Assembly: GCA_022822065.1 (NCBI GenBank)
Contig: JAJECI010000011.1
Coordinates: 62,001-126,000, forward strand
Direction of reading: 5' to 3'
From: Candidatus Dadabacteria bacterium
GTDB lineage: Bacteria > Desulfobacterota_D > UBA1144 > Nemesobacterales > Nemesobacteraceae
Length of the DNA: 64,000 nucleotides
Shown here piece by piece: positions 2,761 to 64,000 of the stretch. How positions within the stretch are numbered: position 1 is the stretch's first letter; each line of letters opens with the position of its first letter. The notes beneath the pieces were generated by a model that was not told the DNA's origin, did no database searches, and saw only the letters and a program-made list of their open reading frames with translations. The position numbers and the translations under genes were made by a program.

Positions 2761-3857
2761 GCCCCCATCAGTTCGATATACAGCTGGTAGCCATAATAGT
2801 TGCGGCTTCATGCGCCATACCGGGGGCGTTTCTTGTCCTAAGAAGGATGTCCATGATGACTGACGCGATCAGCCATTCCATCCTGCTCGGCATAATCCTC
2901 GCTTTTTTCCTCGTAGGGGATCTCTCGTCCCCTTTTCTCATAATAGGAGCCGCCGCAAGCGGGGTGCTCGCGATTTCGCTCATAGAGGCAGTTAACCGCG
3001 CAAGGCTCGTGAAAAAGGACGCGTCGATAGGAATAGTCTTTCCGTTTCTCTTCAGCGTGGCGGTCATACTGCTCTCCAAGTACGCGCGAAACGTGCATAT
3101 CGACACCCACTCCGTGCTTCTCGGAGAGATAGCGTTCGCTCCTTTTAACCGCCTGATTCTCTCGGGTATGGACCTGGGACCCACCTCGGCTTACGTAATG
3201 GGTTCGATTCTTCTTTTGAACCTGCTTTTCATCTCCTTTTTCTACAAGGAGCTCAAGGTGTCGACCTTTGACGAGAGCTTCGCGTCGTCAATAGGATTCC
3301 GTCCCCGCCTGATTCACTATCTGCTTATGGCGGTCGTGTCGCTTACCTGCGTCGGGGCGTTTGACGCCGTGGGCTCAATACTGGTTATAGCCCTTATAGT
3401 GATTCCGCCTTGCTGCGCCTACCTTCTTACGGATTCGCTTTTCAGGATGATTCTCCTGAGCGTGGTCTTTGGAATCTCGGCAGCCGTTTCGGGATTCTGG
3501 GTAGCCAACTGGCTTGACGTTAACATAGCGGGCTCAATGGCTTTTGTGTGCGGAGTATTCTTTCTCGCGGTTTTTCTGCTCGCTCCGCAAAGGGGATTTT
3601 TCGGGATAATGAGAGAAAAAAGGAGGCAGAGGATGGATTTTGCCGAGGCTTCGCTTCTCGTGAGTCTCTACAACCAGGAAAGAGGGGAGGCGGTAAAAAA
3701 CCATCCGGACAGCAGGGGCATGTTCCGGTCCGCTGACTTCGCGTCAAAAGTGGTCGAATTTCTGAAGCAGAAGGGAGAAATAGCAGTTGCGGGCGGGAAG
3801 CTTTTTCTTACGGAGAAAGGAAGAGAGAGGGTGCGAACGACTGTGGAGGGAAGATAA
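2757..3857 (+). CDS. Metal ABC transporter permease (TroD-like), second permease, also with winged-helix-like tail
   Basis: Second ABC-3 permease, starting at an ATGA overlap with the first. The membrane domain contains FLVLRRMSMMTDAISHSIL and GAFDAVGSILVIALIVIPP, the two conserved blocks of the family. After the last membrane helix there are about 80 residues (MDFAEASLLVSLYNQ...KLFLTEKGRERVRTTVEG) with the layout of a winged helix-turn-helix, parallel to the tail of its partner. Two different permeases suggest a heterodimeric channel as in TroCD. No further gene follows on this strand until 4762, so the operon probably ends here. Confidence 0.88.
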   Translation: MSPHQFDIQLVAIIVAASCAIPGAFLVLRRMSMMTDAISHSILLGIILAFFLVGDLSSPFLIIGAAASGVLAISLIEAVNRARLVKKDASIGIVFPFLFSVAVILLSKYARNVHIDTHSVLLGEIAFAPFNRLILSGMDLGPTSAYVMGSILLLNLLFISFFYKELKVSTFDESFASSIGFRPRLIHYLLMAVVSLTCVGAFDAVGSILVIALIVIPPCCAYLLTDSLFRMILLSVVFGISAAVSGFWVANWLDVNIAGSMAFVCGVFFLAVFLLAPQRGFFGIMREKRRQRMDFAEASLLVSLYNQERGEAVKNHPDSRGMFRSADFASKVVEFLKQKGEIAVAGGKLFLTEKGRERVRTTVEGR

Positions 3858-3889
3858 AGGGAGCGGGTTTCAGTAAAGACCAACCCAAC

Positions 3890-4648
3890 TCATTCTATCT
3901 CAATGAATGTTGCCTTAATAGTGATACCGTTTAAGGTTCCCTCTAATCTCCTGACTATGTCTCCCACGTTTATGGAGTCACAGCTAAGATTTTCAATATT
4001 TGCTGTTCCGATCTCGGTATCCGATTTTATCTGAACAAGTACTTCTGTCGGATTGTTATCAGTCGTTTTGTAGCTATCAATTTCCACTCCTATGTTCCCA
4101 GTATCATCAAGACAGTTTTTAGCTGAGACGCGCCCTCTGAAATCCACATTAAAATCTATATTAATATCTTCTGTGTGCTCTATGTTTCCACTCCGAAGGC
4201 GGATATCTCCAATGTCAATCATTGCTCCCGGGAAAACAGTGAGTTTTGTTACTGCAAGCGGTGAGTCTTCCTCCCCAACTTCAGAGATTCTAAGTTCGGC
4301 TTCGGGGTCAAAATCTCCTTCTACACAAAAGTTTCCAGCGGCCTTTGTTATCTGCTCTGGGTTTTCTACCTCTGAATTCCCTGCTCCTATTCTACAGTCT
4401 TTCAGCAATTGGTAGTTCTGGGAGGTTTCCTTATTCACAATCCTTATGGCAAGGTTTGAGACTTCGTCATCTCTTTGCGGAATTACATCTATAATGAATC
4501 CCTCTATACTCTCGGATCCTTCAGTGTTGTTTCCATCCCCACTGCCTCCGAACTCGACATCCAGCCCGCATCCCGAGACTGCGAATAAGGAAATAAAAAG
4601 GAAAAACAGGTAGATTTTCACGGCGCTTGCGCAGGTTTTTGTGTGCAT
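3890..4648 (-). CDS. Putative lipoprotein of unknown function
   Basis: 252 aa with a hydrophobic signal segment ending in a lipobox (FAVSGC, Cys about residue 27), so probably a lipid-anchored periplasmic or outer-membrane protein. The mature part is acidic and rich in beta-strand-like stretches and Asn/Asp/Glu. Two similar stretches (EGFIIDVIPQ... and VRRLEGTLNGITIKATFIEIE) loosely resemble DUF5666-type repeated OB-like modules; this is only an impression. It lies convergent to the metal importer with 32 bases between. Base composition is more AT-rich than both neighbours, which may indicate later acquisition. Confidence 0.65.
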   Translation of the reverse strand: MHTKTCASAVKIYLFFLFISLFAVSGCGLDVEFGGSGDGNNTEGSESIEGFIIDVIPQRDDEVSNLAIRIVNKETSQNYQLLKDCRIGAGNSEVENPEQITKAAGNFCVEGDFDPEAELRISEVGEEDSPLAVTKLTVFPGAMIDIGDIRLRSGNIEHTEDINIDFNVDFRGRVSAKNCLDDTGNIGVEIDSYKTTDNNPTEVLVQIKSDTEIGTANIENLSCDSINVGDIVRRLEGTLNGITIKATFIEIE

Positions 4649-4761
4649 TAAAGCCCTCTGAATTTTAATTGGACTACGGTAGATAATAACATGAGGATCG
4701 TATTAGTTTATTTTCCCACCCAGTCTAACTCTCAAGAGATTCTACCGCAATATCGGCCGAT

Positions 4762-5970
4762 ATGAAAAAAACAAACGTACTTTTCATCAATCACTCGGTG
4801 AGGGACGGAGGACCGGGAAGAAGTCTTCTCTACATACTGAAGTACATCGACCGGGACAAGATAACCCCGTTTGTGCTCGTACCGAAACACGACATATTCT
4901 CAGAGAGCCTGAAATCCGAGGGGATATTCGAAAACATAATAGTCGACCCCAGGTTTCCCGAGAACATACAGAAATCGACAATGGTGGCTGACACCACATG
5001 GGCCCCGGGTCTTATGAGGGTTTTCTCCGTAATCGTAAACATAGTGAATATGCTCCGTCTGCTCTTCGGCTCCCCAAAGATAATCAGGGAAAACGGAATC
5101 GACATTGTCTACTGCAACGGAACCCTTGCGAAGATCGTGGGCACCCTGATCGGAAGGAAAAACAAAAAACCCGTCATCTGGCACGTAAGGAACATACAGC
5201 AGAAGTGGTTTATGAAATCTCTCATGGAAACGCTCTCGGGATTTCGGTGCGTGAAGAAGATAATATGCGTTTCCCGCGCCACGGCCGAGCCGTTTAGAAG
5301 AGCGAAAAGCAAGATTCACGTCGTCTATAACGGCATCGACCCTTCGGATTTCGACAGGGATTCCGTTAGGGGTTCCCTAAGGGAGGAGTTCTCCATACCC
5401 CCGGATACGGTGCTTGTCGGAAATACCGGAAGAGTGGTTCCGAGAAAGGGCTACGTGGAATTCATCGATACCGCAAGCCGGCTTGTTTCAGACGGCGATA
5501 TCGGGGAGAAAACAAAGTTCGTCATAGTAGGAGATACTCCGTGGTTTTTTCCCAAGAACCACCTGCGGGAGCTTGAGGATCACGCGGAGAGGCTGGGGGT
5601 GCGGGACAGCTTTATCTTCACCGGGTACAGAAAGGACGTAAGGCCGTGTCTTAAGGATTTTGACCTCTTCGTTATTCCGTCCAATTACCCGGATCCTTTC
5701 CCGAGGTCAGTGATAGAGGCGATGGCGTTCAGTCTTCCCGTCGTGGGCTTTTCAATAGGCGGCATAGCGGAGGCCGTTGAGGACGGGAAAACCGGTTTTC
5801 TCTGCGCCCCCGGGGATTTTCAGAAGATAGGGGAGAGCATCTCGATTCTCGCGCGGGACGCGGAGGCCCGGAGTGAAATGGGCCGAAACTCAAGGCGCAG
5901 GGTGATGGAAATGTGCTCCGCGTCTGAGCGAACCGCGGACATACAGGAAGTAATCCTCGAGGTCCGGTGA
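4762..5970 (+). CDS. Glycosyltransferase family 4-type (GT-B fold)
   Basis: 402 aa retaining glycosyltransferase of the large GT4 group. The N-terminal domain has the glycine-rich acceptor-side loop (SVRDGGPGRS). The C-terminal domain has the donor-binding start GNTGRVVPRKGYVEF and the E-x7-E-like segment (YPDPFPRSVIEAMAF) followed by PVVGFSIGGIAEAV and DGKTGFLC. Sugar donor and acceptor cannot be read from the sequence; a role in lipopolysaccharide or exopolysaccharide synthesis is the usual expectation. It stands alone, converging on der with one base between the stops. Confidence 0.85.
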   Translation: MKKTNVLFINHSVRDGGPGRSLLYILKYIDRDKITPFVLVPKHDIFSESLKSEGIFENIIVDPRFPENIQKSTMVADTTWAPGLMRVFSVIVNIVNMLRLLFGSPKIIRENGIDIVYCNGTLAKIVGTLIGRKNKKPVIWHVRNIQQKWFMKSLMETLSGFRCVKKIICVSRATAEPFRRAKSKIHVVYNGIDPSDFDRDSVRGSLREEFSIPPDTVLVGNTGRVVPRKGYVEFIDTASRLVSDGDIGEKTKFVIVGDTPWFFPKNHLRELEDHAERLGVRDSFIFTGYRKDVRPCLKDFDLFVIPSNYPDPFPRSVIEAMAFSLPVVGFSIGGIAEAVEDGKTGFLCAPGDFQKIGESISILARDAEARSEMGRNSRRRVMEMCSASERTADIQEVILEVR

Positions 5971-56506: not shown

Positions 56507-57769
56507 GTGAAGATATCAAAACTAAGACTTAAGAACATTAAATGTTTCAAAGACATCGAGATTTCGTTTGAGAATGAAAAAGGCGATGTTAAAAACTGGT
56601 CTCTTTTCGTGGGGGATAATGGACAGGGGAAAACGACAATTCTTAGAAGTCTGGCTGCGGGGCTATGTGATAAGGAAGGGGCATCGGGTCTTTTGTTGGA
56701 ATTGCATGGAGAATTTCTAAGACGAGGTAAAAGGGAAGGTTCTATCGAGATTTGTTTAAAAGACGATAAAGGTAAGCAATATACTATTAAGACTTCTATA
56801 GAGGGCGATAACGAGTCTGTTTCTCAGGATGTCTTTCGGGGTGACCGTGTAGGCAAAAAAGGTGCTGGTGAGGCTAAAGGTTTTGAAAGAGAAGAAGTTT
56901 TCGCTGTAGCTTACGGTGCGGGTAGGTCCGTTGCAGGCACAGAATCCTATGAAGAATATGCATTGGTCGATTCTGTGTATACGCTCTTTAATTATAAATA
57001 TGCTCTACAGAATGCGGAACTGGGGGCAAGCAGGGTTAAGCTTCATTCTGATGAAGAATGGGGAAAACTTAAAGACATCTTAAAAAGAGTTTTGATGTTT
57101 CAGGAAGACGATGAAATTTCTCTGGAAAAAACAGGATTATATGTTGAAACTAGAAGAGGTAAGGAGTCTTTTAATACTTTAAGTGATGGGTATAAATCAC
57201 TGACTTCTGTTATTTTAGATTTTCTAAGCTGGAATCTGATTTATAGAAAAGACGAAGATTTTGATTTAAGCAATCTTTCAGGAATTTTCATCATTGATGA
57301 GCTTGAACAGCACCTCCACCCAAAATGGCAACGAAGGATAGTAAAAATCCTTTCAGAGCAGTTTCCAAAGGTACAATTCATATGCAGTACGCATACTCCT
57401 ATCTGTGCTTTGGGGCTTAGCGACTTGGAGTGTGAATCTTGGCTTTTCAAAGCTGCTTACGTAAACGGGCATAGTGATATTGAGAAATTTGATCTCCGAG
57501 AGGATTTTAGGGGTTACAGAGCTGATCAGATATTGACCTCGGGCATTTTTGACCTTACGGACACGAGGAGTGTTTCCGTAGAAGACAAACTGGAAACTTA
57601 TAGAAAGATATATCTCAAAGAAGAAAGCGACAGAAGTGAGGAAGAAAAGCTACAGTTTCATGCCATTGAAGACGAGTTGAAAGATTTACCTATGTGGGAT
57701 AATGAAAAAGAGAAGAAACAAAGGGAAAAGCTAATCAAATTACTTAAGAGTCAAGAAAAGAAATCCTAA
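56507..57769 (+). CDS. ptuA: PtuA-like AAA ATPase (Septu defence system)
   Basis: 420 aa starting at GTG. Walker A GDNGQGKTT at 36-44, signature LSDGYKS at 225-231, Walker B GIFIIDE at 259-265 followed by ELEQHLHPKWQR, H-loop STHTP at 294-298: an OLD/Septu-type ABC-like ATPase without long coiled coils. The gene is followed three bases later by a PtuB-like HNH nuclease, the defining pair of the Septu system, also used as effector in retron Ec78-type systems. No reverse transcriptase is next to it. C-terminal tail highly charged. AT-rich composition unlike the TCA genes. Confidence 0.85.
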   Translation: MKISKLRLKNIKCFKDIEISFENEKGDVKNWSLFVGDNGQGKTTILRSLAAGLCDKEGASGLLLELHGEFLRRGKREGSIEICLKDDKGKQYTIKTSIEGDNESVSQDVFRGDRVGKKGAGEAKGFEREEVFAVAYGAGRSVAGTESYEEYALVDSVYTLFNYKYALQNAELGASRVKLHSDEEWGKLKDILKRVLMFQEDDEISLEKTGLYVETRRGKESFNTLSDGYKSLTSVILDFLSWNLIYRKDEDFDLSNLSGIFIIDELEQHLHPKWQRRIVKILSEQFPKVQFICSTHTPICALGLSDLECESWLFKAAYVNGHSDIEKFDLREDFRGYRADQILTSGIFDLTDTRSVSVEDKLETYRKIYLKEESDRSEEEKLQFHAIEDELKDLPMWDNEKEKKQREKLIKLLKSQEKKS

Positions 57770-57772
57770 ATA

Positions 57773-58516
57773 ATGATAAAGATTGAGCGTGGAAGACCCC
57801 CTAAAAACACTGCTATAGACAAGAGAAGAGAAAAAGAGCTTCGGAAAATTAGGAAATTAGCAAAGTCTAGAGAATTAAAATCTGGGGATTTTGAAAATTT
57901 ATGGTCAAACCCAAAAGTTAAAGATTTCCTATACGAGTCTCAACACGGTAAATGCTGTTACTGTGAAAGAAAACGAGACAAAAGAGAATCTGACGTAGAG
58001 CACTTTCGCCCCAAAGCTGAAGTTAAAGAAGCCGGAGAAGATCATCAGGGTTACTGGTGGCTTGCCTATAGCTGGGAGAACTTACTTATAGCTTGCAAAA
58101 CATGTAATCAAGAGTACAAGAAATCAAAATTCCCACTGAAGGACGAGGGGAAAAGAGCCTACACAGAAGATTGTGACCTTGGTGAGGAAGAACCATTTCT
58201 TATCAACCCGCTAGAAGAAAACCCGGAATTACTTATAGATTATGATCTTAGGGAAACTAGGCTTATGGCGAAAGCCATTGGAAGGTGTGAACGAGGTGAG
58301 AAAACAGTCAACGAACTGACAGGAATAAATGATAGAAGAGTGATGGAGGAAAGAGCAGACAAACTCAAGGATTATCGGATCTGTGCATATTTAAAGAACA
58401 ATGGGAGCGACGAATTAAAATTAGAGGCCGATGATCGTCTGCGAGAATACGTTTCTCCTAGCAGTGAATTTTCAGGGTTTGCAAGATTCTATTTTCAGAA
58501 GGAAGGATGTCTTTAA
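57773..58516 (+). CDS. ptuB: PtuB-like HNH endonuclease (Septu defence system)
   Basis: 247 aa. HNH core with zinc Cys C61/C64 (KCCYCERK) and C108/C111 (ACKTCNQ), catalytic His in DVEHFRPKAE (H77) and Asn in SWENLL (N103); GYWWLAYSWENLL is a strong PtuB/TIGR02646-type block. Probably cuts nucleic acid when released by the ATPase upstream. The last bases overlap the start of the next gene, which is a metabolic-type decarboxylase, an unusual partner. Confidence 0.87.
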   Translation: MIKIERGRPPKNTAIDKRREKELRKIRKLAKSRELKSGDFENLWSNPKVKDFLYESQHGKCCYCERKRDKRESDVEHFRPKAEVKEAGEDHQGYWWLAYSWENLLIACKTCNQEYKKSKFPLKDEGKRAYTEDCDLGEEEPFLINPLEENPELLIDYDLRETRLMAKAIGRCERGEKTVNELTGINDRRVMEERADKLKDYRICAYLKNNGSDELKLEADDRLREYVSPSSEFSGFARFYFQKEGCL

Positions 58517-59670
58517 TGGAAGACCCTTTCCATATAGAACAACTAGCTAGAACACCCGCATTTATTTACAATCTAGGAGAAGTAAAAAAAAGAGCAACTT
58601 TTCTTTCCCAGATAAAAAACAAATCAAACTGTAAAATTCTTTATTCGGTAAAACCATTGCCCTTGTACAGGGTCTTAGAGGAAATGGAATCCTTGGATGG
58701 TTTTTCTGTAAGTTCTTTTTTTGAGGCTAGATTAGTACAAAACGCCTGTAAGAACGGAAAAGAAGTTCATTTTATCAGTCCCGGAATCAAAAGCGACCAA
58801 TGGGAAGATATCTCAACTGCTGTCAATTATTTAACGTTTAATTCCTTAGAGCAGTTTTCCTTTTTTGAATCTAGGCTCAGAAAGCAAAGTTATGGGATAA
58901 GAGTGAACCCAGAGTTCTCTTTAATTGAAGACCCCAGATACAATCCCTGCCGTGAGTTTTCAAAGCTCGGTGTTCCCATTGCTCAGATTAAAAGTAAGAT
59001 TTCTGACGACCCGGATTTTTTTAAAAAGATAGAGGGAATCCATTTTCACACGAACTTCGAAAGCAGAGATTTTTCTCATTTAACTGAGACTTTTTCCAAC
59101 CTGAAAACCGAACTTGCGGACGAGCTTAAAAGATTCAAGTGGATTAACTTAGGCGGTGGTTATTTCTTTGATGAATCAGAAAATCTATCTCTTTTTTATG
59201 AACTTGTAGACGAACTTAACGATAATTACGATTTTGATGAAATTATCATTGAGCCCGGTAGTTTCCTAGTTAGGGACAGCGGATATCTGGTCTCTTCTGT
59301 TATTGATCTTTTCCGGAGAGATGGAAAAAATATTGCTGTTTTAGACACCACTGTGAATCACCTTCCGGAAGTCTTTGAATACCAATACGAACCTGATGTT
59401 CTAGGAGATGACTTCTCTAACAAGAATGAGTATATATTAGCCGGGAGCAGTTGTCTGGCGGGGGATGTTTTTGGCGTGTATCGTTTTGAGAACGAATTGG
59501 AACTAGGTTCAAAAGTGATTTTTGAGAAAGTGGGAAGTTACTCTCTAGTTAAGGCGCACACGTTTAACGGGATTAATCTTCCTGATATTTATTGTCTTGA
59601 AGATAATACTGGACTGGAAAGGGTGAAAAGCTTTACACTTGAACAATACGTGCACTATTACGGAGGATGA
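58516..59670 (+). CDS. Carboxynorspermidine/carboxyspermidine decarboxylase-like PLP enzyme
   Basis: About 384 aa from the ATG at 58516, which overlaps the ptuB stop (TAATG); an ATG at 58507 is alternative. Fold-III (alanine-racemase-like) decarboxylase with PLP Lys in ILYSVKPL, GIHFHTNFE, phosphate-binding NLGGGYFF, IIEPGSFLV, and catalytic Cys in GSSCLAGDVFGVY. The last block and AHTFNGINLPDI match NspC-type enzymes, which make norspermidine or spermidine. The carboxyspermidine dehydrogenase that normally accompanies nspC is absent, so the substrate may differ. Confidence 0.8.
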   Translation: MEDPFHIEQLARTPAFIYNLGEVKKRATFLSQIKNKSNCKILYSVKPLPLYRVLEEMESLDGFSVSSFFEARLVQNACKNGKEVHFISPGIKSDQWEDISTAVNYLTFNSLEQFSFFESRLRKQSYGIRVNPEFSLIEDPRYNPCREFSKLGVPIAQIKSKISDDPDFFKKIEGIHFHTNFESRDFSHLTETFSNLKTELADELKRFKWINLGGGYFFDESENLSLFYELVDELNDNYDFDEIIIEPGSFLVRDSGYLVSSVIDLFRRDGKNIAVLDTTVNHLPEVFEYQYEPDVLGDDFSNKNEYILAGSSCLAGDVFGVYRFENELELGSKVIFEKVGSYSLVKAHTFNGINLPDIYCLEDNTGLERVKSFTLEQYVHYYGG

Positions 59671-59673
59671 TTC

Positions 59674-61047
59674 ATGCGGTTTTTAGAGAGAGAAATATCT
59701 TTTCCTAAGATTCAAGACAACAGAGATTTGCTGTCATACATTGAAGAGCAAACATCTTCTTGTTTGAGTGAAGAAGGTCTGCTACCTATAAGGATTGCTG
59801 TTACTGACAGCTCGGGTGCGGATTACAAATGCGAAGTTGGTGCTTTGTGCACGGAAGACACAAGCAGCTTTGAGGAAGCGAAGCTGGTATTTGAATTCAA
59901 AAAACGAAAGTTTGAGAACACGAGAAATTTTAACGTTGTTTTCCTGATCCCTACTGGAATTGGTTGTGAAATCGGGGGCCACGCTGGAGATGCCACCCCG
60001 GTTGCAAGACTTTTATCTTCCAGTTGCGATACCCTCATCACTCATCCGAATGTTTTTAACGCTTCGGACCTCAATGAAATGCCAGACAACAGTCTTTATG
60101 TTGAAGGGAGTACAATTTGTCGTTTGATAATGGGAACCGTAGGTCTGCAACCCGTTAGATCTAACAGAATCCTCGCTGTTATAGATAAAAATGAACATGA
60201 AATTTTTGAAAACGCGGCTGTTAATTCTATCAACGCCGCCAGGGCCGTCTTAGGAATAGAATGTTCCGATATAGTGAAATTGGAACCCTCAATGACTATG
60301 AAATCCGAGTATTCCTCTTCCGAAAGAGCTGTTGGCACCATTGACGGAATTGATAATTTATTCTCCATATTGAAAAAGTACGAAGGAAGTTATGACGCAG
60401 TTGCCATCTCGTCGATAATTAATGTCCCCGAGCATTATCACAAGGAGTATTTTCGTTCCAGGGGAGAGATGGTTAACCCTTGGGGAGGGGTGGAGGCTAT
60501 GCTTACTCATGCTGTTTCTTACAAGCTCAACATTCCTTCGGCCCATTCCCCGATGTTTGAATCTCCTAAAGTTGCTCATCCGGACCCCGGAATTGTTGAA
60601 GCTAGGATGTCGGCAGAAGCCGTCTCCACCACGTTCTTTCATTGCGTTCTAAAAGGACTTCATAAAAGCCCTAAAATCATTACCGATCCGGACGTATTTC
60701 ATTACGATGATATTATTTCGGCAAAAGATATTTCCTGCTTGGTTATTCCTGATGGTTGTTTGGGTCTTCCTACTCTGGCGGCTTTAGAGCAGGGAATAAA
60801 AGTTGTTGCCGTAAAAGAAAATGAAAACCTGATGAAAAATGATCTCAACGAACTTCCTTGGGATACCGGACAATTTATTCAGGTAGAAAACTATTTGGAG
60901 GCTGCCGGAGTTTTAAACTCTATTAAAAATGGAATTGATCCTTCTTCGATAAGGCGGCCTTTTAAAACTTTAGATCCTTTTGGAACTTCAGATGTTTCTC
61001 GTGGTTCTGAGCACCAGAGGCCAGCCTTGAAACAGGTAAAAGTGTAG
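59674..61047 (+). CDS. DUF3326-family protein of unknown function
   Basis: 457 aa. Conserved block IGCEIGGHAGDATPVARLL followed by CDTLITHPNVFNASDLNEMP and a VEGSTICRLIMGTVGLQP segment, which I recognise as DUF3326, best known from cyanobacteria and otherwise uncharacterised. It begins three bases after the decarboxylase, so it is the fourth gene of the ptuA operon. The Gly-rich and His/Asp-rich conserved parts suggest an enzyme with nucleotide or metal binding, but that is inference. Followed by a 115-base gap. Confidence 0.75.
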   Translation: MRFLEREISFPKIQDNRDLLSYIEEQTSSCLSEEGLLPIRIAVTDSSGADYKCEVGALCTEDTSSFEEAKLVFEFKKRKFENTRNFNVVFLIPTGIGCEIGGHAGDATPVARLLSSSCDTLITHPNVFNASDLNEMPDNSLYVEGSTICRLIMGTVGLQPVRSNRILAVIDKNEHEIFENAAVNSINAARAVLGIECSDIVKLEPSMTMKSEYSSSERAVGTIDGIDNLFSILKKYEGSYDAVAISSIINVPEHYHKEYFRSRGEMVNPWGGVEAMLTHAVSYKLNIPSAHSPMFESPKVAHPDPGIVEARMSAEAVSTTFFHCVLKGLHKSPKIITDPDVFHYDDIISAKDISCLVIPDGCLGLPTLAALEQGIKVVAVKENENLMKNDLNELPWDTGQFIQVENYLEAAGVLNSIKNGIDPSSIRRPFKTLDPFGTSDVSRGSEHQRPALKQVKV

Positions 61048-61162: not shown

Positions 61163-61684
61163 ATGCTAAGCAGAATTGCGAAATTTGCGTTAACTATCAC
61201 TGCTATTGCGCCAGTGTTGTTTACGTATTTTGGTGTTGCTCTTCTGAAAGGCGATAGAGTCACTGCAATGTTGCTGCTTGGTGGGTTTTTGATTCTTTCT
61301 TTTATCTGTTTGTGGTTGTTGCACTACGTAAAAAATAACGTGGAGAGTTTTAGTTTCCAAGCAGTTTCTGTTGAAATTGCTGACGGGGAAAATGTTGCTT
61401 TTTTGATGCTTTACTTGTTTCCTCTTCTCACTGGTCGGACCGTGACACTTGATTGGCAAATCTGGTTACCGACCATCTTTGTTTTTGGTACAGCCGTCGC
61501 AGTGAGCTACAGTTATCACTTTAATCCGCTTCTCGGTCTCCTCGGCTGGCACTTCTACAAGGCAAGTACCGAAGAGGGTGTAACTTACGTTATTATCAGC
61601 AAGAAGCAGTTTTGTAACATTAACCAGACGATTGAAGTCGCACAGTTAACCGAATATATAGTAGTTGACTTGGGGGGTAAATAA
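61163..61684 (+). CDS. KwaA-like membrane protein (Kiwa defence system)
   Basis: 173 aa with about four hydrophobic segments (near 7-29, 33-56, 78-92, 101-125) and a C-terminal cytoplasmic tail of about 40 residues. Size and topology fit KwaA, the membrane sensor of Kiwa, and the gene after it belongs to the KwaB/DUF4868 group. Membrane proteins of this kind share little sequence, so the name depends on the neighbour. GGGGGTG precedes the ATG. Confidence 0.65.
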   Translation: MLSRIAKFALTITAIAPVLFTYFGVALLKGDRVTAMLLLGGFLILSFICLWLLHYVKNNVESFSFQAVSVEIADGENVAFLMLYLFPLLTGRTVTLDWQIWLPTIFVFGTAVAVSYSYHFNPLLGLLGWHFYKASTEEGVTYVIISKKQFCNINQTIEVAQLTEYIVVDLGGK

Positions 61685-61686
61685 AC

Positions 61687-62554
61687 ATGCCTCAAAATCT
61701 CTTTGCAGCATGTCGGATCGATAATGAACTTAGAGCCAAGCGTACACCTTGGTAAAAGTGTCCAGCGGGACGTAGAAACAATATTCAAAGACCAAGAAGA
61801 AGACTTCCGAAGAGGTGTAACCGACGAAGTCAATTTTGATGGTGACTGGAAGCCTGAACCCAATGAGTTTTTGACCATTGATATTCCGCAGGAAGCACAA
61901 ATACTCGTTGACACAATAAATTCTAATGCCGTTTCCGTTCCCTCTATAAATACTAAAGAATTTGGTCAAGAGGGTATCAAAGCTCTGTTTGCTGGTTCTT
62001 CAAGCAATGGGTCAACAAAAGTATTAATCCAACAGTTCTCATCGCGACAGATGCTCTCAGATAAGTTTGCATTGGTGTTGAAAGGCAACGCGTTCCGACG
62101 CCTAGATGATCAAGCGTTTACTCTTGATACATCCCTTACCTGTATTTTGGAAGACGGAAAGCTGAAGTTTAAGAGTTTCCACAAGATGCGGTCAATAATA
62201 GATTTGTCAGATTTTTACAGGGAGGCTACTGAAACTGAAGTTAGATCATTTGCGAAACATCCAACTTTTAAGGTTGTCGATGTTGAAAGGTTCTTAAGTG
62301 AATCCGACCAGACTATGAGAAAGCTCATACATTCTGTTACGCACATGGAGACCCTAGATAAATATTCTGCCAAAGAGATCAAAGAAGCTGCAAAAGATGT
62401 CAAGATGGACATCGCTATTAAGAAAAGACGGATTGTCATGCCCGAGAGTCGTGCCGAGATAAAAATATTGTTACATTTTCTGAACGATGGGGTATACGAA
62501 GCGCCACTGAGTAAGCAACGCTACGTGACTAATTCAAAGAAGCGGTATAAATAA
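61687..62554 (+). CDS. KwaB/DUF4868-like protein, apparent frameshift near the N-terminus
   Basis: The long frame (from TTG at 61703 or ATG at 61724, to 62554) shows DUF4868 features: FKSFHKMRSIIDLSDFYREA and a C-terminal LSKQRYVTNSKKRY. A better start is the ATG at 61687, two bases after the kwaA stop and behind a G-rich ribosome site. It reads MPQNLFAACRIDNEL, the NLFA-type beginning expected for this family, but stops at 61753. A +1 change near 61729-61735 (CTT AGA G) joins it to LEPSVHLGKSVQ in the long frame. Either a real or sequencing indel, or less likely +1 slippage at CTT. KwaB is the DNA-binding effector partner of KwaA in Kiwa. Confidence 0.68.
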
Positions 62555-62558
62555 TTAG

Positions 62559-62583
62559 GGGAATTACATACATAAATAAAAAA
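62559..62583 (+). repeat. 25-base direct repeat, left copy
   Basis: Perfect 25-base copy of the sequence at 63839-63863, beginning GGGAATTACATACATAAATA. It lies between the kwaB stop and the start of the Shedu-like gene. The bases just outside differ in the two copies. Confidence 0.9.
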
Positions 62584-62588
62584 TAAGG

Positions 62589-63812
62589 ATGACTGCAAAG
62601 AAAGAGGCTGCTTCAAAAAGGAAGGTTGCGAAAAAGAATACCGCGCGGCGTACGCACAAGGTCTGTAATAGGTGCGGTTTTGACTGCGCACTCAATGCCC
62701 GAACATGCAGTGAGTGCGGAAGCGAGAAGTTCGCGCCGGACTGGGTGATTGCCAAACGACCTGTCAACCGGCAGGTCAGTGTCGAAGTGACCAAGTCAAA
62801 TCCGAAGTTCGGAGAAACTCAGGAACGGCTTACCCTGAGCAAATGGTGGCCGGGCGGCAGTGCGACTTTTCACCTGCCCAATCTCGGGCAGTGGGAGGAA
62901 ATCGAACGCATTATCAATAACGACCTTGCGCCGCTGATCGGCTGGAAGCCTGCCGATGAACTGGTCAAGTCAATCAAAAAGAAGTCAAAGAACGGTAAAT
63001 CCGGTGCGACGGGGGAAGACTATATAGAGCTGATGGACACGCACCCGGATTTTCTCAAGAAGCTGGTACAGGCGATTGACCCAAACAGGATATCGAAAAA
63101 GGAATTTGACAATGTAGTAGAGATTTTCGGCAATATCTCGGATGCCCTAACGAACGCGAATGCCGGGTTCCGGGAAGCCTTTCTTGCTGTCGTTGAAAAG
63201 CTCCCGAAACAGAAACGGCGTGCGCTTGAAGACCTCGGCCTGCTTTTGCAAAGCTGGTCGTTACAGGTCGTGACAAATGTCGCCCAACAAGTCAAGGCAC
63301 GCATGGAGACGATCGAGTTGTTCGAAAAGCAAATCCAGGACGAGAAGACATTCGAGATTATCAGCGATAACTCGATTCACCGTATTCTTGAGCGTGCCAT
63401 GTGGCTTATTGACGAGCGCTACTGGCTTTTGCAGTCCAACAATACGCTGCGCAAATTTATCGGCGAAGAAATGAGCAGGAGGGACAAGAGGAAGTACGGC
63501 AAGAAAAGACCGGACTTTGTCTGCGGTACCGTCGATAACAAACTCATTATCCTGGAACTCAAACGTCCTTCTCACAGTTTGACTGTTGAGGATTTAAATC
63601 AGCTTGAGACCTACACGGTCATTGCCGAGGACTACAAGAACTTCAACTCATATGAAGGCTATCTTGTTGGTAGTAAGGAAGATAGCGAGTTGCGACGCTA
63701 TCTGCGGCGGCGCTCAGGATTCAAGGTGCTTCACTATGCAGACATCATCCAAAAGACGATGGGACGCTACAAAGAGTTTCTCGATGCGATTGAATCCGAC
63801 AAAGATGCTTGA
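62589..63812 (+). CDS. Shedu-like (SduA/DUF4263) PD-(D/E)XK nuclease with N-terminal zinc ribbon
   Basis: 407 aa. A basic tail and a four- to five-Cys zinc ribbon (C26, C29, C33, C40, C43: CNRCGFDC, CSECG) come first. A middle helical region follows, then the nuclease domain: ERAMWLIDERYWL (about 268-280), RPDF with D309, ELK with E323 and K325, and Q338, the D-ExK order of the PD-(D/E)XK fold seen in SduA. Single-gene Shedu systems protect by nicking or cutting DNA. The zinc ribbon may provide target recognition. Clearly more GC-rich than kwaAB and enclosed by direct repeats, suggesting separate arrival. AAGG precedes the ATG. Confidence 0.78.
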   Translation: MTAKKEAASKRKVAKKNTARRTHKVCNRCGFDCALNARTCSECGSEKFAPDWVIAKRPVNRQVSVEVTKSNPKFGETQERLTLSKWWPGGSATFHLPNLGQWEEIERIINNDLAPLIGWKPADELVKSIKKKSKNGKSGATGEDYIELMDTHPDFLKKLVQAIDPNRISKKEFDNVVEIFGNISDALTNANAGFREAFLAVVEKLPKQKRRALEDLGLLLQSWSLQVVTNVAQQVKARMETIELFEKQIQDEKTFEIISDNSIHRILERAMWLIDERYWLLQSNNTLRKFIGEEMSRRDKRKYGKKRPDFVCGTVDNKLIILELKRPSHSLTVEDLNQLETYTVIAEDYKNFNSYEGYLVGSKEDSELRRYLRRRSGFKVLHYADIIQKTMGRYKEFLDAIESDKDA

Positions 63813-63838
63813 TGAGTATTCTGTTAGGCGACCCTCTT

Positions 63839-63863
63839 GGGAATTACATACATAAATAAAAAA
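63839..63863 (+). repeat. 25-base direct repeat, right copy
   Basis: Second perfect copy, 1280 bases downstream of the first, 26 bases after the nuclease stop. Together the repeats bound a cassette of one gene plus one repeat. Confidence 0.9.
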
Positions 63864-63916: not shown

Positions 63917-64000
63917 ATGAAAAGATGGTTTTATTTCGTACCACCTCGCCATGAAAAAATAATCGAAGTTAAGGAACTGTTGCTATCCAGAAGGTCCTTA
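63917..64000 (+). CDS. Start of an unidentified gene, cut by the window end
   Basis: ATG at 63917 opens a frame of 28 codons that is still open at the end (MKRWFYFVPPRHEKIIEV...). Too short to place in a family. It is spaced as the next member of the defence island. Between the nuclease and this start only the repeat is seen. Confidence 0.35.
   Translation, partial: MKRWFYFVPPRHEKIIEVKELLLSRRSL

What the first reader, a model, noticed from the sequence alone, without database searches (positions are those of the whole stretch)
62559..63863. Shedu-like nuclease gene enclosed by perfect 25-base direct repeats
Identical 25-base AT-rich repeats start 1280 bases apart, one before and one after the gene, with unlike flanks. 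The gene is more GC-rich than both sides. This looks like a mobile single-gene cassette inserted or excised by recombination at the repeat, a possible way to swap defence genes. No recombinase is in view.
Basis: seen in the sequence. Interest (0 to 1): 0.65.

Follow-up and report, generated by a model that had tools for sequence, protein, structure and literature searches.

The report
Transposon-end-flanked defence nuclease module
The two identical 25-base repeats around this nuclease gene are end sequences of a family of jumping elements (IS1595 type) found across this genus of Dadabacteria, so the gene looks like cargo moved between species by transposon ends, in a genus where such elements often carry DNA-cutting defence genes.

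Summary
The repeat is real: GGGAATTACATACATAAATAAAAAA at 62559-62583 and 63839-63863, in the same orientation, 0 expected by chance. It is not a generic recombination site. In sister genomes it is the terminal inverted repeat (TIR) of IS1595-family transposons. G007 has a 3,082-bp element with perfect inverted copies, a perfect 8-bp target duplication and a Pfam-positive IS1595 transposase, and a 1,592-bp cargo-only element with the same ends. The window's nuclease gene is cargo behind such an end. A sister species (G004) holds the same TIR-gene-TIR unit at 95.6% DNA identity with different DNA immediately outside it. The gene's dS is 0.136, against 0.175-0.509 for eight core genes, so it probably moved after the species split.

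No right-hand inverted end was found in G000, so this copy looks stranded. The direct orientation is unusual: none of 13 intact relatives shows it. Six of those 13 carry DNA methyltransferase or restriction-modification cargo. New variant of a known kind (IS with passenger genes / mobile insertion cassette).

The parts
62550..62557 (.). AT-rich 8-mer AATAATTA next to the first repeat: candidate target-site copy; contains the stop codon of kwaB (62552-62554)
   Evidence: Intact elements of this TIR family have AT-rich 8-bp duplications TAAATTTT and CAAAATTA. No second copy next to a right end was found.
62559..62583 (+). First 25-bp repeat = left TIR of an IS1595-type element
   Evidence: identical to the TIR of the transposase-bearing element G007:C2 (L049 5006-8087)
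62589..63812 (+). Cargo gene, 407 aa: N-terminal CxxC..CxxC zinc ribbon, helical middle, C-terminal PD-(D/E)XK-like nuclease domain (RPDF..ILELKRP)
63839..63863 (+). Second 25-bp repeat, same orientation: TIR of a second module. DNA inside it differs between G000 and G004; its outer 8-mer ACCCTCTT is not the AT-rich kind
63917..64000 (+). Start of a 95-aa open frame inside the second TIR (continues to G000:C8:126204, beyond the window); candidate second passenger
   Evidence: L003 917-1204; no Pfam hit
61703..62554 (+). kwaB, immediately upstream; the first repeat begins 4 bases after its stop codon, co-directional
   Evidence: in no other of 61 genomes searched
61163..61684 (+). kwaA (Kiwa partner)

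Best explanation
The 25-bp repeat is the terminal inverted repeat of an IS1595-family transposon lineage of this Dadabacteria genus. The nuclease gene is a passenger on a transposase-less element of that lineage (a mobile insertion cassette), moved in trans by a cognate IS1595 transposase. It landed in a defence hot spot between sucC and a sigma70-like gene/dnaK, directly behind kwaAB. Shown: TIR identity, 8-bp duplications and transposase in sister elements, cargo-only relatives, and the same unit with different neighbours in another species. Inferred: movement in trans. The second copy, in direct orientation, is probably the end of a second TIR-bounded module next to the first, which lost its own right end (composite plus end-adjacent deletion or recombination at TIRs). 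The gene probably acts as an anti-phage nuclease read through from the kwaAB promoter (inferred).
For: G007:C2 element: 25/25 TIRs inverted, TSD TAAATTTT perfect, DDE_Tnp_IS1595 E=4.7e-46 plus Zn_ribbon_IS1595. G007:C1 element: same TIR, TSD CAAAATTA perfect, no intact transposase. Repeat at <=3 mismatches in 9 of 14 genus genomes, and in 3 of 87 other genomes, there only at 3 mismatches. Same unit in G004, 95.6% over 1,304 bp ending at the repeats, different DNA outside; nuclease dS 0.136 vs 0.175-0.509 for eight core genes. Right flank of the G004 element matches a G012 sequence that lacks it, from the TIR edge outward. Hot spot content differs between genomes and is empty in G003. Cargo on IS1595 elements of the genus includes methyltransferase or R-M genes in 6 of 13.
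Against: In the window the copies are direct, not inverted, and no right inverted TIR is found within about 25 kb, so this copy cannot transpose by the ordinary two-end route. No transposase with this TIR is in the G000 assembly: its only intact IS1595 transposase is 43% identical to the G007 one and has a different TIR. No target duplication around the unit. Only two genomes carry the unit, both at the same hot spot, so inheritance in place plus gene flow is possible. Several TIR copies in the genus have no detected partner; some lie near contig ends.
Confidence: 0.8

Rival explanations
1. Direct-repeat cassette: TIR plus gene moves as a circle that recombines (RecA or transposase) into any existing TIR, as translocatable units of pseudo-compound transposons do. 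One TIR then lies on each side of the gene and the host element's DNA follows.
For: Shared unit ends at the TIRs on both sides; the interior after the second TIR is unrelated in the two species while the junction ACCCTCTT|TIR is the same. In G004 the structure TIR> nuclease TIR> orf123 <TIR is what insertion of a circle into an orf123 element would give. The IS1595 member ISApl4 forms circles and a directly oriented pseudo-compound transposon (PMC12561309).
Against: Only two cases, both at one hot spot; no direct TIR pair in 13 other elements; 25 bp is short for homologous recombination; no empty TIR element with an orf95 or orf123 interior was found.
Confidence: 0.25
2. Vertical inheritance: the unit was in the common ancestor at this locus and the neighbouring DNA was replaced later by unrelated events (IS110 insertion on the left in G004, indels on the right).
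For: Same hot spot and orientation in both genomes. An IS110 abuts the left repeat in G004, and a short sequence in its end matches its junction with the repeat.
Against: Nuclease dS is less than half the median of core genes; G004 has no kwaB; the right-hand break falls at the inner end of the second TIR.
Confidence: 0.25
3. The repeat is a regulatory element (promoter or leader) shared by unrelated genes.
For: The nuclease ATG lies 6 bp inside the first copy, and one other copy (L046) also has an ATG just inside.
Against: Inverted pairs with perfect 8-bp duplications around a transposase gene; most copies are not followed by a gene start.
Confidence: 0.03

Closest known systems
tISCpe8 / MTnSag1 (IS1595-family elements with a passenger resistance gene)
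   Same: 25-bp TIRs, 8-bp direct repeats, AT-rich targets, one passenger gene plus an IS1595 DDE transposase (PMC5704250); same layout as the G007:C2 element
   Different: The window unit has no transposase, no paired inverted end, and a nuclease rather than a drug-resistance gene as cargo
Mobile insertion cassettes (MIC), e.g. IS231-MIC231 of Bacillus cereus (De Palmenaer 2004, cited in PMC3129680; definition partly from memory)
   Same: Passenger gene between IS ends without a transposase; modular
   Different: Different IS family; MIC ends are inverted, here the second copy is direct
Pseudo-compound transposons, e.g. Tn7560 with two direct ISApl4 copies (IS1595 family)
   Same: Cargo between directly oriented IS1595-type ends, no target duplication (PMC12561309)
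   Different: There whole IS copies flank the cargo; here only the 25-bp ends do
BbrUII/HgiDII-family restriction enzymes (C-terminal domain) and Shedu SduA
   Same: PD-(D/E)XK-like nuclease domain; NF050001 E=2e-6 to 8e-10 over the C-terminal part; B. cereus Shedu 8ti8 is second by fold, E=0.067, probability 0.77
   Different: Far below the NF050001 cut-off (27-38 vs 550 bits); no DUF4263/SduA hit; N-terminal zinc ribbon instead

Membership tests
IS1595 family (the element that owns the repeat) | DDE_Tnp_IS1595 transposase domain with N-terminal zinc ribbon | tested here: met
   Sister element G007:C2: PF12762 E=4.7e-46, PF12760 E=3.7e-10. No such gene was found between or near the repeats in the window.
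IS1595 family (the element that owns the repeat) | 8-bp target-site duplication | tested here: met
   TAAATTTT and CAAAATTA, perfect, for two elements with this TIR. Not present around the window unit.
IS1595 family (the element that owns the repeat) | Terminal inverted repeats beginning GG | tested here: met
   GGGAATTAC..., 25/25 inverted in G007:C2; related ends in 12 further elements
Mobile insertion cassette (window unit) | Passenger gene between IS ends, no transposase | tested here: met
Mobile insertion cassette (window unit) | The two ends in inverted orientation | tested here: not met
   Both copies direct; no inverted partner within about 25 kb. In G004 an outer inverted end exists at 1,794 bp.
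Mobile insertion cassette (window unit) | Transposition in trans | not testable with these tools
   needs an assay
Shedu (SduA) | DUF4263/SduA sequence profile | tested here: not met
   No SduA/DUF4263 hit in Pfam or PADLOC
Shedu (SduA) | PD-(D/E)XK nuclease fold like solved Shedu | tested here: inconclusive
   Low-confidence model (pLDDT 64.8); Shedu second at E=0.067, NucS first

The most novel reading that the evidence does not exclude
IS1595 ends in this genus work as an integron-like exchange system: single defence genes, each with one TIR, are passed from element to element by recombination at TIRs, building arrays such as TIR-nuclease-TIR-orf-TIR, while the autonomous elements specialise in carrying restriction-modification systems.
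Probability: 0.12. Interest if true: 0.7.

Novelty: new variant of a known kind. Interest (0 to 1): 0.45.

Why it matters
It gives a concrete vehicle for the turnover of anti-phage genes in an uncultured lineage: small IS1595-type elements whose cargo often includes methyltransferase or restriction-modification genes (6 of 13 elements examined) and, here, a lone nuclease moved between species. Such elements are easy to miss because defence-system searches look at genes and IS annotation looks at transposases, while cargo-only elements show only 25-bp ends. The direct-TIR unit shared by two species makes module exchange at transposon ends testable.

Tried and rejected
Empty site after kwaB: kwaB is absent from all 60 relatives searched and the kwaAB DNA gave no hit in the other genus genomes, so none could exist to be found. 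Right inverted TIR in G000: not found with up to 8 mismatches within the fetched ~29 kb downstream, nor by joint TIR and target-duplication scoring within 8 kb. Repeats around the distant homologues in L010 and L011: none related to the TIR. The own-genome IS1595 element (G000:C9) as source of transposase: its TIR differs after GGGAATTA, so unlikely. A 50-bp stretch 92% identical to the start of the nuclease gene near a contig end in G011 is too short to use as evidence of a second locus. PDB sequence search found mostly ribosomal zinc ribbons at weak E-values. Target duplication for the G004 composite: not found (left of IS110 ATTATTAA, right AAATTATG). The literature search found no report of IS1595 elements as restriction-modification carriers, but the key paper (Siguier 2009) was only seen as a citation, so this may be partly known.

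Full report
Observation. Two identical 25-base copies of GGGAATTACATACATAAATAAAAAA lie at 62559-62583 and 63839-63863, same strand, 1,280 bases apart. With up to 3 mismatches they are the only copies in the window (0 expected from 100 shuffles) and in the 1.63-Mb assembly G000. Between them is one 407-aa open frame starting 6 bases inside the first copy. The gene is 50.0% GC against 41.6% and 38.3% in the flanks and 55% in nearby core genes.

What the repeat is. A search of 101 genomes finds the repeat (23-base core, up to 3 mismatches) in 9 of 14 genomes of the same genus and in 3 of the other 87, there only at 3 mismatches; reversed-pattern controls gave 0 hits in the genus. The homologous unit in the public record JAJEGO010000018.1 identifies the lineage as Candidatus Dadabacteria. 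Several copies form inverted pairs. In G007:C2 (L049 5006-8087, 3,082 bp) two perfect copies face each other, flanked by a perfect 8-bp duplication TAAATTTT, and enclose a transposase that matches DDE_Tnp_IS1595 (E=4.7e-46) and Zn_ribbon_IS1595. In G007:C1 (L048 5047-6638, 1,592 bp) the same ends, with duplication CAAAATTA, enclose other genes and only a 44-residue transposase remnant. A 1,014-bp element in G005 has the ends but no transposase and imperfect duplications. These are the defining features of IS1595-family elements as given in PMC8101967. The known elements tISCpe8 and MTnSag1 also have 25-bp TIRs, 8-bp direct repeats, AT-rich targets and a passenger gene (PMC5704250).

The unit moves or has moved. 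G004, another species of the genus, holds the same unit. Alignment runs from the third base of the first repeat to one base past the second (1,304 bp, 95.6%), and DNA immediately outside is unrelated on both sides; synteny resumes about 0.7-1.1 kb to the right at the sigma70-like gene and dnaK. The nuclease gene has dS 0.136 against 0.175-0.509 for eight core genes between the same two genomes, which suggests exchange after the species split. A flank of the G004 element has a relative in G012 without the element, homologous from the TIR edge outward. The locus, between sucC and the sigma70-like gene, is a hot spot: compared genomes hold different DNA there, and G003 has nothing.

The direct orientation. 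In G004 the order is TIR> nuclease TIR> orf123 <TIR, so an inverted outer end exists 1,794 bp from the first. In the window the DNA after the second TIR is different (a 95-aa frame) and no inverted end was found in the fetched ~29 kb downstream. None of 13 end-defined IS1595 elements of the genus has an extra direct TIR within its fetched locus. The outer 8-mer of the second TIR (ACCCTCTT) is unlike the AT-rich targets, whereas that of the first (AATAATTA, overlapping the kwaB stop codon) fits them. The simplest reading is that the second copy is the end of an adjoining TIR module, brought next to the gene by deletion or recombination. A circle inserting at a TIR, as in pseudo-compound transposons (ISApl4, PMC12561309), is a live rival. 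The window copy looks stranded: no second end and no transposase with this TIR in the assembly.

The cargo. Four distant homologues (55-61% identity) share an N-terminal CxxC..CxxC ribbon and a C-terminal GKKRPDF...ELKRP motif. One lies between genes matching HmaB and HmaC of the Hma defence system (L010); two lie in IMG/VR viral contigs, one after what look like tail genes. Profiles give a weak match to the C-terminal part of BbrUII/HgiDII restriction enzymes. The AlphaFold model is weak overall (pLDDT 64.8) but better over the C-terminal domain (77-89 for residues 311-390), whose best solved matches are NucS/EndoMS, then Shedu and MspJI, all with E above 0.05. I call it a PD-(D/E)XK-like nuclease; Shedu membership is unproven.

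A wider pattern. Of 13 IS1595 elements in the genus with a transposase and matched ends (12 with matching 8-bp duplications; for G000:C9 a duplication AATAATTA is inferred with one extra G), six carry DNA methyltransferase or restriction-modification genes: G000:C9 (methylase plus type II enzyme), three in G007, one in G010 and one in G012. I did not measure the genome background, and elements were included only where ends could be found, so this is a lead, not a tested enrichment.

Verdict. A transposon-end-bounded defence-gene module; new variant of a known kind (IS with passenger genes / mobile insertion cassette).

Noticed in passing
G000:C9:122663-125958 (L103 1164-4459), same genome, outside the window: A 3,296-bp IS1595 element with at least 30-bp perfect TIRs carries a D12-class DNA methylase and a type II restriction enzyme besides its transposase.
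   Followed up: partly
L117, L151, L157, L165, L166: Five further IS1595 elements in sister genomes carry methyltransferase or restriction-modification genes, including a 1,094-aa type IIG-like enzyme.
   Followed up: partly
L009 about 3397-4972 (G004): An IS110-family element abuts the left repeat of the G004 unit. Its non-coding end contains CTGAATTACAT, identical to its junction with the repeat; a relative in G011 has CTGGGGGG in the same place and the same letters at its own junction. This looks like a bridge-RNA guide matched to the IS1595 end.
   Followed up: partly
window 56507-58516 and 61163-62554: PtuA/PtuB-like (Septu) and KwaA/KwaB (Kiwa) genes in the same 8.7-kb variable stretch; an OLD/AriA-like ATPase lies beyond dnaK (L003 5297-7228).
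   Followed up: no
window 58507-61047: A PLP-decarboxylase-like gene and a DUF3326 gene lie inside the defence hot spot; G003 has the matching stretch (84%) on another contig, C100.
   Followed up: no
L144 3925-3974 (G011:C1, near the contig end): A 50-bp stretch 92% identical to the start of the nuclease gene, joined to unrelated DNA; possibly a remnant.
   Followed up: partly
L048 6613-6638: In the cargo-only G007:C1 element the right 25-bp TIR is followed directly by a second IS1595-like end (GGTAATTATGTATTTTG), as if one end had been stacked on another.
   Followed up: no
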